Below, in pieces: positions 27,559 to 44,400 of a DNA stretch of 50,205 nt; position 1 is the first letter of the stretch; the number at the start of each line of letters is the position of its first letter. A program made the position numbers and the translations under genes. A model generated the notes under the pieces. The model ran no database searches. It had not been told where the DNA came from and saw only the letters and a program-made list of their open reading frames with translations. Source of the stretch: Candidatus Poribacteria bacterium. Lineage in GTDB: Bacteria; Poribacteria; WGA-4E; JAJDTR01. The stretch spans positions 1 to 50,205 of the forward strand of contig JAPPIK010000057.1 of NCBI GenBank assembly GCA_028820655.1. Direction: 5' to 3'.

Positions 27559-28560
27559 ATGCATAATAGTTTAACAGGCGCAGTTTTCCTAACTTTAGCA
27601 ACATTCGTGGCATTTATTGTGCAGTCACATTCGGAGGGGGAATCTATGGAGGAATACAAATCACTGCAGGTTGGCATGGTAGCGCCAAGTTTTACCCTAA
27701 TGGATGGCGATGGGGTTGAACGCAATCTGTCCGACTTTCTAGGGCAAAAGAACGTCGTTTTAGCGTTTTATCCGAAGGATTTTACCGGCGGCTGAACGAC
27801 GGAGTTGCGTTCGCTCCGGGATGAGCTGAGTAACATTGAAGCCACTGACAGTGTGGTGTTTGGCATTAGTGTAGATGACGTGCAGTCGCACAAGAGATTC
27901 CAGGAGGTTGAGAAGTTTGGCTTTTCCTTACTTGCAGACACGGAATTTGCGGTCAGCAAAATTTATAGTGGGATAATGGAACGGTTCAACGCTTCGAATC
28001 GCGTAACGTTTGTTATCGACAAAGCCGGATATATCAGAGTCATCGATGAGGAGGTTGACGTTGCGAATCATGGTGCCGACGTGGTTAAGTTCATCAATAA
28101 CAGAGTAACTGGCGAACTGGAGGTCGGACAACCCGCACCGGACTTTATTGCTACCGACCAAGATGGCGAAACATATCAGCTCAGTCAGTTCAAAGGGAAG
28201 AAGAGTGTTGTTTTGGCGTTTTATCCCAAGGATTTTACGGGCGGCTGAACGGCAGAAGTTTGCTCACTCCGGGATGAGTCGAGCGTATTTGCCCTCCATG
28301 ATGCGCAGATTTTCGGAATCAGTGTCCAAGACGCCGAGTCGCATAAGAGATTCGTACAGGAGCATAGCCTGAATTTTCCACTGCTTGTAGACAGCGGGCG
28401 CAACCTTAGCTTGCTTTTCGGCGCTGCCGATGCTCCAAGCGACATGAGCAAGCGCATTACCATCATTGTTGACAAAGCGGGGAAGATTTCCAAGATTGAC
28501 ACCAACGTCAATGCAAGAACTCACGGCAAAGATCTCGTTGATTTCTTCAAGGGAATGTAG
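27559..28560 (+). CDS. Tandem two-domain peroxiredoxin with two in-frame UGA (selenocysteine) codons
   Basis: Read through two TGA codons (27793-27795 and 28246-28248), one frame gives 333 aa made of two AhpC/TSA (BCP/PrxQ-like) domains. Each domain has V/G-x-x-APDF or [19 protein letters not shown] and a downstream SLRDE. The UGA sits exactly where peroxiredoxins have the peroxidatic Cys (T-x-x-C). Domain 2 keeps a Cys five residues later (U-T-A-E-V-C), the PrxQ resolving position, while domain 1 has Arg there (U-T-T-E-L-R). From the ATG at 27559 the first ~25 residues form a signal peptide or membrane anchor. The ATG at 27646, preceded by ggaggggg, would give a cytoplasmic form with Sec at 50 and 201. 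Role: peroxide reduction with thioredoxin-like donors. A pseudogene with two identically placed stops is much less likely. Confidence 0.88.
27809..27831 (+). promoter_or_regulatory. Putative bacterial SECIS hairpin 1
   Basis: Arms GTTCGCTC (27809-27816) and GAGCtGAGT (27823-27831, one bulged base) close the 6-base loop CGGGAT (27817-27822). The loop begins 22 bases after the first UGA and has G at its second position. Both features lie within the known range for bacterial SECIS elements. Two of the outer pairs are G-U wobbles. Confidence 0.7.
28262..28284 (+). promoter_or_regulatory. Putative bacterial SECIS hairpin 2
   Basis: Arms GCTCACTC (28262-28269) and GAGTcGAGC (28276-28284, one bulged base) close the loop CGGGAT (28270-28275). 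All eight pairs are Watson-Crick. Loop sequence, bulge position and distance to the UGA (22 bases) are identical to hairpin 1. One inner pair changes from G-C to A-U by a compensatory double change. Confidence 0.75.
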
Positions 28561-28610
28561 CACATTCCCAAAGGCGGATGCGATAGGTAGGATTCCTTTC
28601 GGTTAATCTC

Positions 28611-28644
28611 TGCCCTTGTCGCTAAACTGCCCTTGTCGCTAAAC
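28611..28644. repeat. 17-bp perfect tandem duplication
   Basis: The sequence tgcccttgtcgctaaac occurs twice head to tail (28611-28627 and 28628-28644), just before the ribosome site of the next gene. It does not alter that gene's reading frame from the ATG at 28657. Confidence 0.8.
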
Positions 28645-28656
28645 AGGGGGAATTGG

Positions 28657-29214
28657 ATGACAATCAATAGCCCGAGGTTCCAACAGGCTGAGACCTTTCT
28701 TACTTCTTACGACACCGGGGAGATTGCGCACTTTAACGGGGATTTTTTCTCCCACTTGCGTCGGACAGCCGACTTGCTCGTCAGGTGGGGGAACACCGAG
28801 TATGTATGCCTCGCGGGTTTGTGTCACGCTGTTTACGGTACGCAGGGCTTTCAACAAGGCATTCTGGAACCTGACGAACGCCACCTCCTGCAGGAGGTCA
28901 TCGGGCTCGATGCTGAAGGGCTTGCGTATTTTTACTGTTCATGCGACCGCTCCAGTCTGTATCCAACAATTGGTGCGTCAGGAGGATTCAAGTTTCATGA
29001 TCGTTTCACCGGTGACAGATATGAGCCGTCCGAACAGATGGTATGCGATTTCCTTGAAGTTACATTTTCAAACGAAGTGGAGCTAGGTTCGTTGAGCCCA
29101 GAGTTTGTCAACAATTGCCGCGAGTTTTTCCAAGACTTTATGCCCCGCTGCAAACCGTATGTGTCTCAATCGGCATTCGAGGCAGCCGTTAGGCTATTCG
29201 AACTTCCAGTGTAG
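28657..29214 (+). CDS. DUF6817 domain protein (HD-like helical)
   Basis: 185 aa from the ATG at 28657, preceded by an aggggg ribosome site. A TTG eight codons upstream lies inside the tandem repeat and is unlikely. The pattern HFNGDFFSHLRRTADLLVRWGNTEYVCLAGLCHAVYGTQGF, then ERHLLQEVIGLDAEGLAYFYCSCDR, matches DUF6817. His pairs spaced as in HD-domain hydrolases (H-x5-T, AGLCHAVYGT) suggest a metal-binding helical fold. Substrate unknown. The C-terminal part (FVNNCREFFQDFMPRCKPYVSQSAFEAAVRLF) is helical. It is followed 52 bases later by the PhyH gene on the same strand. Confidence 0.8.
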   Translation: MTINSPRFQQAETFLTSYDTGEIAHFNGDFFSHLRRTADLLVRWGNTEYVCLAGLCHAVYGTQGFQQGILEPDERHLLQEVIGLDAEGLAYFYCSCDRSSLYPTIGASGGFKFHDRFTGDRYEPSEQMVCDFLEVTFSNEVELGSLSPEFVNNCREFFQDFMPRCKPYVSQSAFEAAVRLFELPV

Positions 29215-41132: not shown

Positions 41133-41480
41133 ATGCCTCTTAGAAAGGTCCGTTGGATTGGCGATTCATGAAAACGGTTACAAGGTTTCCCAGAGGCGGT
41201 GCGGAAAGATATTGGCCATGCGTTGTATCGCGTACAGATTGGCGAAATCCCACCATCCGCAAGAATGATGGCGCGCAAAGGCACTGGTGTTAATGAGATT
41301 GTTGACAATTATGACACAGATACTTATCGTGTAGTCTATCCCGTAAAGATTGGCAGTAACATCTATGGATTACACATTTACCAGAAGAAGTCAAGAAGGA
41401 GGATCAGTACACCCAAGAAGGAAATTGATTTGATTAAACGAAGGTTAAAACGGGCGAAAGAAATGGAGATGGAGGTATGA
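41133..41480 (+). pseudogene. HigB/RelE-type toxin (Gp49-like) with premature TGA
   Basis: Reading from the ATG at 41133 gives MPLRKVRWIGDS, then TGA (41169-41171), then KRLQGFPEAVRKDIGHALYRVQIGE...GLHIYQKKS. This is a complete Gp49/HigB-like toxin (RelE superfamily, mRNA interferase family) with one nonsense codon. A GTG at 41199 could start a shortened product of 93 aa lacking the first strand and helix. The 3' end overlaps the antitoxin gene (ATGA), the usual toxin-first higBA order. No SECIS-like hairpin follows the TGA at the expected distance, so I read it as a disabling mutation. Confidence 0.75.
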
Positions 41481-41800
41481 GCAATAAAATCAGGGTTGAA
41501 GAGGGCAGCGGCAACATCTTCAAAGATTTAGGGTTCTCCGATGACGTTGCAAAGGACGAACTATTGAGAGCGCAACCAGGAGTAGAAATCCAGTGTATTC
41601 TAAAGGAACGAGAACTCACGCAGACGGAAGCGGCAAATTTGCTCGGAGTAAAACGGACTGAAATATCTCGCCTAAACGACGCCAAACTTTCCGACTATAG
41701 CGTTGAACGACTCCTGCGGTTTCTTGAGTGCCTGAACTGCGAGGTAAGCATACATATATGTGCGCCGGGATACGATACAGCGCGAGTTATCGCGGTGTGA
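41477..41800 (+). CDS. HigA-like XRE-family antitoxin
   Basis: 107 aa. IQCILKERELTQTEAANLLGVKRTEISRLNDAKLSDYSVERLLRFLECLNCEVSIHI is a helix-turn-helix of the XRE/HigA type. The N-terminal part (VEEGSGNIFKDLGFSDDVAKDELLRAQ) matches the small helix-turn-helix proteins paired with Gp49-like toxins. It overlaps the toxin gene by four bases. The frame is intact although its toxin is broken, as expected if loss of the toxin is tolerated. It would bind its own promoter and the toxin. Confidence 0.9.
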   Translation: MSNKIRVEEGSGNIFKDLGFSDDVAKDELLRAQPGVEIQCILKERELTQTEAANLLGVKRTEISRLNDAKLSDYSVERLLRFLECLNCEVSIHICAPGYDTARVIAV

Positions 41801-41831
41801 TGATTTTCCATTAAGGGTGGGAATTCAATAG

Positions 41832-42029
41832 GAAGTATTTCTAATTCCAACTGATTCCGATAAGTGGGACAATGAAATCCGCCGGTTAACAGATGAATTT
41901 AGGGGCGCCCGATATGTAGTTTGCGGAAATGCCTGTGACGGAAGGGATGCCAACGCGGTATGTCGAATCTTGGATTCGGGGAAGCTAAGAATAATAACAG
42001 TTTACGTGACGGAACGAGAAGGACATTGA
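41832..42029 (+). pseudogene. Remnant of a DUF4258-like small protein (toxin-like)
   Basis: The frame 41832-42029 encodes VFLIPTDSDKWDNEIRR...RYVVCGNACDGRDANAV...RILDSGKLRIITVYVTEREGH. The ending resembles small MqsR/DUF4258-type proteins found upstream of YgiT-like antitoxins. No start codon follows the in-frame TAG at 41829-41831. The nearest upstream start is GTG at 41817, so the gene is either truncated or carries a nonsense codon. It overlaps the YgiT-like gene at a TTGA junction. Family assignment is tentative. Confidence 0.5.
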
Positions 42030-42265
42030 GAGCGAACCAATGTGAATATTGCACCGGAGCCATTCAACCAAAAAAGGTTACAGCAGAACACTGGTATGAG
42101 GGTACATTGGTGATTATCAGAGATGTGCCCGTTGGCGTATGCGGGACATGTGGAGAACGGTATTATGAGGCATCAACTCTGGAACAATTAGATGCGATTG
42201 CGAGGGAGAGCGAATCTGCTCAAGAAAGAATGTCTGTTCCTGTCGTGACATTTGCCCTTTCATAA
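42026..42265 (+). CDS. YgiT/MqsA-type zinc-finger antitoxin-like protein
   Basis: 79 aa from TTG at 42026, which overlaps the stop of the preceding frame and is preceded by gagaagg. A longer frame from 41960 reads unrelated sequence. Two CxxC pairs (CEYC near the start, CGTC in GVCGTCGERYYEASTLEQLD) and YEGTLVIIRDVPVG form the YgiT-type zinc-binding domain of MqsA-like antitoxins. It lacks the DNA-binding helix-turn-helix domain of full-length MqsA, which is common in this subgroup. The partner toxin appears degraded. Confidence 0.85.
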   Translation: MRANQCEYCTGAIQPKKVTAEHWYEGTLVIIRDVPVGVCGTCGERYYEASTLEQLDAIARESESAQERMSVPVVTFALS

Positions 42266-42325
42266 TGATTAGCAGGGCGTTTGGCTCAATAGGATGGCCC
42301 ATGTTACGTTTAGAGGGTGGATGTA

Positions 42326-42562
42326 GTGAAAACCAAGCTGCTTGACGTTGTTGCTCTTACAGACGATTTGCCTGAATATAATCTCAGGCGAGGGCAAGTT
42401 GGTACGGTGGTCGAAATCCTTGCAGGCGGTACTGCATTTGAAGTTGAATTCAGTGACCGTGACGGCCGTACGTATGAGTCAGTCGGTTTGCGACCAAATC
42501 AGATTATGACGCTGCACTATGAACCAATGGAAATTGAGCCAGTTCAACTTGTTCGCGCCTAA
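42326..42562 (+). CDS. DUF4926 domain protein
   Basis: 78 aa from the GTG at 42326; a GTG at 42317 is also in frame. KLLDVVALTDDLPEYNLRRGQVGTVVEIL...AFEVEFSDRDGRTYESVGLRPNQIMTLHYEP is a characteristic DUF4926 sequence, a small beta-barrel, SH3-like domain. Such genes occur in toxin-antitoxin-like and mobile islands, often beside a DUF6883 gene that is not present here. Function unknown. A gagggtgg stretch upstream may serve as ribosome site. Confidence 0.85.
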   Translation: MKTKLLDVVALTDDLPEYNLRRGQVGTVVEILAGGTAFEVEFSDRDGRTYESVGLRPNQIMTLHYEPMEIEPVQLVRA

Positions 42563-43123: not shown

Positions 43124-43985
43124 ATGAACCTAGAATTTGAGAGGAGTCCGAAACTTCAGAAGTGGCTGCGTTGGATGGAGGTTGTTCATAGCGAGATTTC
43201 CGTACTGCTTCGGGATACGAGCAAGTTTTGGGAAGTCCAAGACATTATAAGTGCGAACCCGCGTATACAAAAGCCTAGCACTTTCTATTGCTATCTGGGA
43301 AGAACCTATCTTTCTCACGCACTGGCAGGTTTACGACGACAAATTAAACCGAACAAAGAAAGCATTTCCTTAATAGGGCTGCTTGATGATATCGCAGAAA
43401 ACCCTGAACAACTCTCCCGGAGTTACTACCGTTCTCTCTGCTCTCATCCCGATGAGCCTGACATCTGCCAAATAGAAAGCGAGGGTAGGACAACGCTTGC
43501 AGAAGCGGGAATTACTGACTCGTCACAACTTAAGAAATTGATAAATGTGGATGACTTCGCTCAATATGCAGATTAAGAAATTGATAAATGTGGATGACTT
43601 CGCTCAATATGCAGATGCCAGTGGGAAGCATGTTTGTCCACAAATGGTAATGGCTGATCGTGACAAGCTTAAATCAGCGGTAGGGGCATGTGAGGGGTAT
43701 GCCGATAAACGTATTGCCCACCGGGATAAGGACAATCCTGACACTGTACCAAGATTCGGGGAACTTGATGAGTGCATTAAATTGCTTGATAAGACGTATG
43801 TAAAATACCACGTACTGTTTTACGCAGAGTGGATGGACACGTTGATGCCAACCTATCAATACAACTGGAAGACGGTTTTCCTTGAACCGTGGCTAGCCGC
43901 TGTTGCTGGAAGTGCAAAAAGACTCATCCACATATCTGAAGATTTCGACGGTGAATTACCGGAGTTCAGAGAGTATATGCAGTGA
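43124..43985 (+). pseudogene. HEPN/AbiU2-like protein disrupted by a 43-bp tandem duplication
   Basis: The first frame (43124-43576) ends at a stop created by the second copy of a 43-bp sequence. The next frame carries on from 43617. Removing one copy restores a single 272-aa protein, MNLEFERSPKLQKW...LKKLINVDDFAQYAD-ASGKHVCPQMV...ELPEFREYMQ. ALAGLRRQIKPNKESISLIGLLDDIAENPEQL and CEGYADKRIAHRDKDN are like HEPN_AbiU2-type proteins (an R...H motif near DKRIAHRD), a family of putative RNases linked to abortive infection and toxin-antitoxin loci. The end overlaps a VapC-like gene (GTGA). Family call is by pattern only. Confidence 0.65.
43530..43615. repeat. 43-bp perfect tandem duplication
   Basis: Copies 43530-43572 and 43573-43615 are identical. 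The length is not a multiple of three, so it shifts frame inside the HEPN-like gene. It could revert by slippage or recombination. Confidence 0.95.
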
Positions 43986-44400
43986 GATACCTACTTGATA
44001 CCCACACGTTGCTCTGGTTTCTCGCTAACGATAGAAGATTGAGTCGCCATGCTCGACGACTCATCGAAAGTTCAAACAACGATAGATTGCTCAGTGTCGC
44101 TAGTCTTTGGGAGATTGCAATCAAGGTGAGGATGGGGAAACTAGATTTAATTGAACCGTTTGATCGCTTGTTTCCAGAACAACTGCATCTCAATAGGATT
44201 GAAATGCTCCATATTACAGTTGATAGCCTCGTTAGGCTGACTACATTACCTTTCTATCCGCGACACAGAAATCCTCACGACCAACACACAGATCCGTTTT
44301 ACCGTTTGATAATTGCCCAAGCACTCGTTGAAACATATCAATTATTGGAGTAGACCCAGACTTTGATGCATACGGCGTAATTAGAGAATGGTCAGAATGA
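43982..44400 (+). pseudogene. VapC-like PIN toxin with C-terminal frameshift
   Basis: PIN-domain toxin starting with GTG at 43982: MRYLLDTHTLLWFLANDRRLS (Asp6), VASLWEIAIKVRMGKL (Glu44), DPFYRLIIAQALVE (Asp104). The frame stops at 44353 (123 aa). The missing end is present in another frame (ISIIGVDPDFDAYGVIREWSE, stop 44398-44400). One extra A in the short run at 44331-44333 would join them as ...ALVE-N-ISIIGVDPDFDAYGV, restoring the last acidic residue of the active site. No VapB-type antitoxin precedes it. The HEPN-like gene overlaps its start instead. Confidence 0.75.

What the first reader, a model, noticed from the sequence alone, without database searches (positions are those of the whole stretch)
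43530..43615. 43-bp perfect tandem duplication that turns a HEPN-like gene off
Removing one copy restores a complete 272-aa frame. Exact identity shows the event is very recent or under turnover. A reversible duplication of this kind could work as an on/off switch for an abortive-infection-like gene.
Basis: partly seen in the sequence, partly recalled or inferred. Interest (0 to 1): 0.6.

Follow-up and report, generated by a model that had tools for sequence, protein, structure and literature searches.

The report
Broken fused antitoxin gene, not switch
A perfect 43-base tandem duplication really does break a gene here, but the gene is best read as the antitoxin of a VapBC-type toxin-antitoxin pair whose toxin gene is damaged too, so it looks like a recently decaying defence-type module rather than an on/off switch.

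Summary
In detail: two identical 43-bp copies stand head to tail (43530-43615, plus one shared T) and the copy junction makes a TAA stop. Counting the unit once gives 272 codons, the length that 13 relatives from other Poribacteria genera match almost end to end with no stop (58-72% identity). The interpretation does not hold well. The gene is an AbiU2/HEPN-like domain fused to a C-terminal VapB antitoxin tail (20 of 25 relatives match NCBIfam TA_VapB). It overlaps a PIN/VapC toxin gene by ATGA. Relatives without the tail have no PIN gene next to them. So the duplication breaks an antitoxin-type gene. The window's vapC carries its own damage: a 27-nt insertion beside the active site and a 1-nt deletion that removes the C-terminus. 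The same-genus copy is broken differently, by an IS110. Every array of two or more copies keeps the junction stop, and the copies share only 1 bp of flanking microhomology, so reversible cycling is unlikely. Period 43 appears nowhere else in 1.16 Mb of this genome. Best reading: recent pseudogenization of an unusual AbiU2-VapB/VapC module. The fusion is the interesting part. Read-level copy number could not be tested.

The parts
43124..43576 (+). N-terminal open frame (150 aa) of the AbiU2/HEPN-like - VapB fusion gene, ending at the junction TAA
   Evidence: matched by relatives at 58-78%
43530..43572 (+). copy 1 of the 43-bp unit
43573..43615 (+). copy 2 of the 43-bp unit, identical; 43616 T continues the repeat by one base
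43574..43576 (+). TAA created at the copy 1/copy 2 junction; present for any number of copies above one
43566..43568 (+). ATG in the C-terminal frame 5 nt before the junction TAA: a possible reinitiation start (no clear Shine-Dalgarno)
   Evidence: inference
43545..43985 (+). C-terminal open frame (146 aa), keeping the rest of the AbiU2-like domain and the whole VapB tail
43842..43979 (+). VapB-type antitoxin tail (NF050009 TA_VapB, E 6.7e-6), ...SAKRLIHISEDFDGELPEFREYMQ
43982..44353 (+). vapC/PIN toxin gene, overlapping the antitoxin frame by GTGA; damaged (123 aa instead of about 128 plus insertion)
   Evidence: (PF01850 E 1.5e-7)
44258..44284 (+). 27-nt in-frame insertion in vapC just before the DPFD active-site motif (DPFD is DPFY here); absent from 16 relatives
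44318..44400 (+). 1-nt deletion in vapC (about 44318-44325); the conserved C-terminus IIGVDPDFDAYGVIREWSE continues in another frame to TGA 44398-44400
42317..42562 (+). neighbour: DUF4926 gene, conserved upstream in the same-genus genome (context, not part of the module)

Best explanation
The locus is a VapBC-like type II toxin-antitoxin module in a Poribacteria genome. Its antitoxin has an AbiU2/HEPN-like N-terminal domain of about 225 aa in place of the usual small DNA-binding domain, joined to a standard VapB toxin-binding tail, and its toxin is a PIN-domain VapC encoded by the overlapping downstream gene. A single illegitimate duplication of 43 bp (1 bp of microhomology) recently frameshifted the antitoxin in or beside its length-variable linker. 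The toxin gene also carries two lesions. The module is therefore most likely decaying: with the toxin crippled, losing a full-length antitoxin costs little. The tail-bearing C-terminal frame is still open and directly abuts vapC, so a shortened antitoxin could still be made by reinitiation. Shown: the duplication, the stop, the fusion and operon in relatives, and the lesions. Inferred: toxin/antitoxin function, loss of activity, and the order of events.
For: Relatives match almost end to end with no stop. The tail matches TA_VapB in 20/25 members, and in the window's own C-terminal piece at E 6.7e-6; DUF2281 (PF10047) in 16/25. Tail-bearing members have a PIN gene or a remnant of one nearby downstream (in G014 it is on another contig); the 5 tail-less members (L020, L021, L028, L029, L031) have none. 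Less similar VapCs (38-46%) in the same group of bacteria are preceded mostly by ordinary short Phd/VapB antitoxins ending in the same motif, GKVKIAxDFDELPE. AbiU2 assignment: PF18734 scores 36.4 bits against a 26.8 cut-off in L028, a homologue of the window gene. Window vapC has an insertion plus a frameshift. The same-genus locus, syntenic at 80-83%, has an IS110 inside the antitoxin. dN/dS of about 0.1 in both window pieces against G010 argues for a recent break.
Against: No function has been tested. PF18734 is below its cut-off in the close relatives and in the window, and TA_VapB is below its curated cut-off (26-37 bits against 60) because only the tail matches. A damaged vapC might still work. 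The vapC 1-nt deletion could be an assembly error. In G001 and G016 the antitoxin is broken while vapC is intact, so a broken antitoxin does not require a broken toxin; in both, as here, the tail-bearing frame remains open.
Confidence: 0.72

Rival explanations
1. Reversible phase-variation switch: the array gains and loses one 43-bp copy and so turns the gene off and on, as tandem duplications do in pneumococcal capsule genes.
For: Perfect 43-bp repeats can delete by slippage or recombination. Precedent for spontaneous in-gene tandem duplications that control capsule phase variation: Waite et al. 2001 and 2003, cited in PMC4022640. The protein still looks constrained.
Against: Only 1 bp of flanking microhomology, so ON to OFF would be rare. 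The stop is at the first junction, so no array of two or more copies is ON. The downstream vapC is broken as well. Relatives carry the region once, without duplication. No comparable duplication was seen interrupting a gene elsewhere in 1.16 Mb of the genome.
Confidence: 0.08
2. Split antitoxin that still works: the N-terminal 150 aa and a restarted C-terminal piece (ATG 43566 or 43545) are both made, or the tail-bearing piece alone neutralises VapC, so the duplication only detaches the AbiU2-like domain.
For: ATG 43566 lies 5 nt before the TAA, a usual layout for reinitiation. The tail frame is open and overlaps vapC. In the other broken antitoxins where the 3' part can be read (G001 with IS110, G016 with a frameshift) the tail frame also stays open.
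Against: No clear Shine-Dalgarno. Window vapC is itself damaged, so there is little to neutralise. Open tail frames could be chance in recent breaks.
Confidence: 0.15
3. Assembly artefact: the genome has one copy and the second is an assembly error.
For: A metagenome-type genome in 61 contigs; no reads available; relatives have one copy.
Against: No other period-43 repeat in 1.16 Mb, so no constant-overlap signature. The array of 87 bp is shorter than a normal short read, and the site is inside a contig.
Confidence: 0.07

Closest known systems
VapBC type II toxin-antitoxin modules with Phd/VapB-type antitoxins (NF050009 TA_VapB, PF10047 DUF2281)
   Same: Antitoxin upstream, 4-nt overlap with a PIN toxin gene, C-terminal tail GxxKGxIxIxxDFDxELPxF, PIN fold with DTH, WEI and DPFD motifs
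   Different: The N-terminal DNA-binding domain is replaced by an AbiU2/HEPN-like domain; the antitoxin is about 225-276 aa instead of about 80
AbiU2 family of HEPN domains (PF18734; Anantharaman et al. 2013, PMC3710099)
   Same: Distant relatives of the gene score above the Pfam cut-off over nearly the whole profile
   Different: AbiU2 is listed with a conserved Rx4-6H motif and in operons with Sel1 or R-M genes. Here the presumed motif position reads ADKRIAH, without the R, and the operon partner is VapC
HEPN-RHH fusions (paREP1 family; Makarova et al. 2009, PMC2701414)
   Same: A HEPN domain fused to an antitoxin-type domain
   Different: Fused to a DNA-binding RHH domain, not to a VapB tail, and not paired with a PIN gene there
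Pneumococcal capsule phase variation by in-gene tandem duplication (Waite 2001, 2003, cited in PMC4022640)
   Same: A tandem duplication in an open frame shuts the gene off
   Different: There, phase variation is reported; here a single two-copy state in one genome, beside other lesions in the operon

Membership tests
VapBC type II toxin-antitoxin | PIN-domain toxin encoded downstream, overlapping or abutting the antitoxin gene | tested here: met
   PF01850 E 1.5e-7; stop/start overlap of 4 nt in relatives and window
VapBC type II toxin-antitoxin | Antitoxin with a toxin-binding C-terminal tail | tested here: met
   TA_VapB tail in 20/25 relatives and in the window C-terminal piece, below the curated full-length cut-off; same tail motif in ordinary VapBs of the same group
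VapBC type II toxin-antitoxin | N-terminal DNA-binding domain (RHH, AbrB, Phd) in the antitoxin | tested here: not met
   N-terminal part gives no such domain; only AbiU2-like matches
VapBC type II toxin-antitoxin | Toxin neutralised by antitoxin; RNase activity of the toxin | not testable with these tools
   needs expression assay
HEPN_AbiU2 (PF18734) | Match to the family profile above its cut-off | tested here: inconclusive
   Window 13.3 bits, L017 19.0, L028 36.4, L029 26.8; cut-off 26.8. Membership only through homology to L028 and L029
HEPN_AbiU2 (PF18734) | Catalytic Rx4-6H motif | tested here: inconclusive
   At the presumed C-terminal position no R at -5, -6 or -7 in 25/25 members and H lost in 4; an alternative RTYLSH at residues 60-65 is common; not resolved without a structure
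Phase-variable gene by tandem repeat | More than one copy number seen among cells or strains | not testable with these tools
   one genome per species, no reads
Phase-variable gene by tandem repeat | Repeat kept in relatives at the same site | tested here: not met
   13 relatives carry the region once with no stop

The most novel reading that the evidence does not exclude
The duplication acts as a detachable-sensor switch: with one copy, VapC is held by an antitoxin carrying an AbiU2-like sensing domain; with two copies, reinitiation inside the repeat makes only the short tail antitoxin, uncoupling VapC from the sensor, and slippage restores the full form.
Probability: 0.06. Interest if true: 0.65.

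Novelty: new variant of a known kind. Interest (0 to 1): 0.36.

Why it matters
The duplication itself is an ordinary disabling mutation. What it led to matters more. Across many Poribacteria genomes, an abortive-infection-type AbiU2/HEPN-like domain is joined to a VapB tail and sits in the antitoxin place of a VapBC pair. That architecture is not listed in the HEPN survey passages read (PMC3710099). It suggests that antitoxins can exchange their DNA-binding part for a possible sensing domain. A TPR protein with the same tail next to a vapC (L131) points the same way.

Tried and rejected
PADLOC: no consistent defence-system match for the family. PDB sequence search: only unconvincing matches. 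Viral contigs, plasmids and phages: no relatives, so no evidence that the module is on phages or plasmids. DNA hairpin as cause of the duplication: the region folds worse than shuffles, z +1.3. Constant assembler overlap: rejected. Origin of the 27-nt vapC insertion as a tandem duplication: no self-similarity found. A first count of the window's deviations at conserved sites read the second piece in a wrong frame and was replaced.

Full report
Observation. Two identical 43-bp copies lie at 43530-43572 and 43573-43615, with one further matching base at 43616. The unit is 14 codons plus one base. The first open frame (43124-43576, 150 aa) ends at a TAA that straddles the copy junction. The second (43545-43985, 146 aa) carries the remainder in the shifted frame. 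Because the stop is at the junction of copies 1 and 2, every array of two or more copies is broken; only a single copy gives a full frame.

Derived state. A 272-residue reading with the unit counted once was searched in 194 genomes. Thirteen relatives match with no stop at 58-72% identity: eleven over 270-272 positions and two from position 6. Others have shorter versions of the linker just before the duplicated segment. So one copy is ancestral. The window pieces have dN/dS of about 0.11-0.12 against G010, like intact pairs (0.10-0.14), and deviate from only 5 of 83 invariant positions. The break is recent.

What the gene is. The N-terminal part is AbiU2/HEPN-like: PF18734 scores 36.4 bits in L028, 26.8 in L029 and less in the nearer relatives (cut-off 26.8). 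The C-terminal part is a VapB antitoxin tail: TA_VapB matches 20 of 25 members, and the window's own C-terminal frame at E 6.7e-6. The next gene, overlapping by 4 nt, is a PIN/VapC toxin. The five members that lack the tail lack a neighbouring PIN gene, while the tail-bearing ones have a PIN gene or remnants (in G014 an IS-like transposase lies beside the antitoxin and the PIN gene is on another contig). These genomes are related, so this is not 25 independent events. More distant VapCs of the same bacteria mostly have ordinary short Phd/VapB partners with the same tail motif, and one has a TPR protein with that tail (L131). The gene is therefore best read as an antitoxin with an unusual front domain.

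State of the module. The window's vapC has a 27-nt insertion next to the DPFD motif (here DPFY) and a 1-nt deletion that moves its last residues, including the conserved D of the FDAYG region, into another frame. In the same-genus genome G001 the syntenic locus (80-83% identity on both sides) has an IS110 between about codons 84 and 85 of the antitoxin, seen as two contig ends. G016 has a frameshift near codon 76-85. In G001 a second copy has an intact antitoxin and a broken PIN gene. These modules break often and in different ways. In the window, G001 and G016 the tail-bearing frame stays open, which may mean that the tail alone suffices; this is inference from three cases.

Switch or scar. 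For a switch: perfect repeats can shrink, and tandem duplications do control pneumococcal capsule genes (Waite 2001, 2003, cited in PMC4022640). Against: only 1 bp of microhomology, so the duplication would seldom form again; a damaged partner gene; no repeat in relatives; and in 1.16 Mb (20%) of the genome no second period-43 array, the other arrays of 33-147 bp being mainly dispersed 33- and 35-bp element families. The genes around those other arrays were not examined one by one. The scar reading is favoured. The reads that would settle it were not available.

Comparison. By its parts it works like VapBC. It fails the usual VapB feature of a DNA-binding N-terminus. As an AbiU2 it is a borderline member, and the Rx4-6H motif is not found at the presumed place (AbiU2 is listed as having it in PMC3710099). 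HEPN-RHH fusions are known (PMC2701414); an AbiU2-VapB fusion was not found in the papers searched. That search covers open-access text only.

Noticed in passing
window 27700-28560: Two tandem peroxiredoxin domains each have an in-frame TGA at the peroxidatic cysteine (FTGG*T), suggesting a double selenocysteine peroxiredoxin; the genome has a tRNA-Sec above cut-off (76.6 bits).
   Followed up: partly
L131 (G045:C38), ORF ending at the PIN start: A 421-aa TPR-repeat protein ends in the same VapB tail and overlaps a vapC gene: a second kind of large-domain antitoxin fusion.
   Followed up: no
window 41199-42562: Cluster of toxin-antitoxin-like genes (HigBA-like pair, YgiT-type zinc finger protein, DUF4926) between two amidohydrolase genes; in G001 the same place also holds a second AbiU2-VapB gene.
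   Followed up: partly
window 28610-28644: A 17-bp perfect tandem duplication (2.06 copies) at the start of the 28633-29214 reading frame.
   Followed up: no
L067, L069, L088, L093 (own genome): A 35-bp element occurs as tandem arrays of 2.3-2.8 copies at several places, and a 33-bp element likewise (L056, L093).
   Followed up: no
L012 2310-2693 (G028): VapC relative with two active-site-region acids changed (DPFD to YPFG) beside an intact antitoxin: a likely inactive toxin.
   Followed up: no
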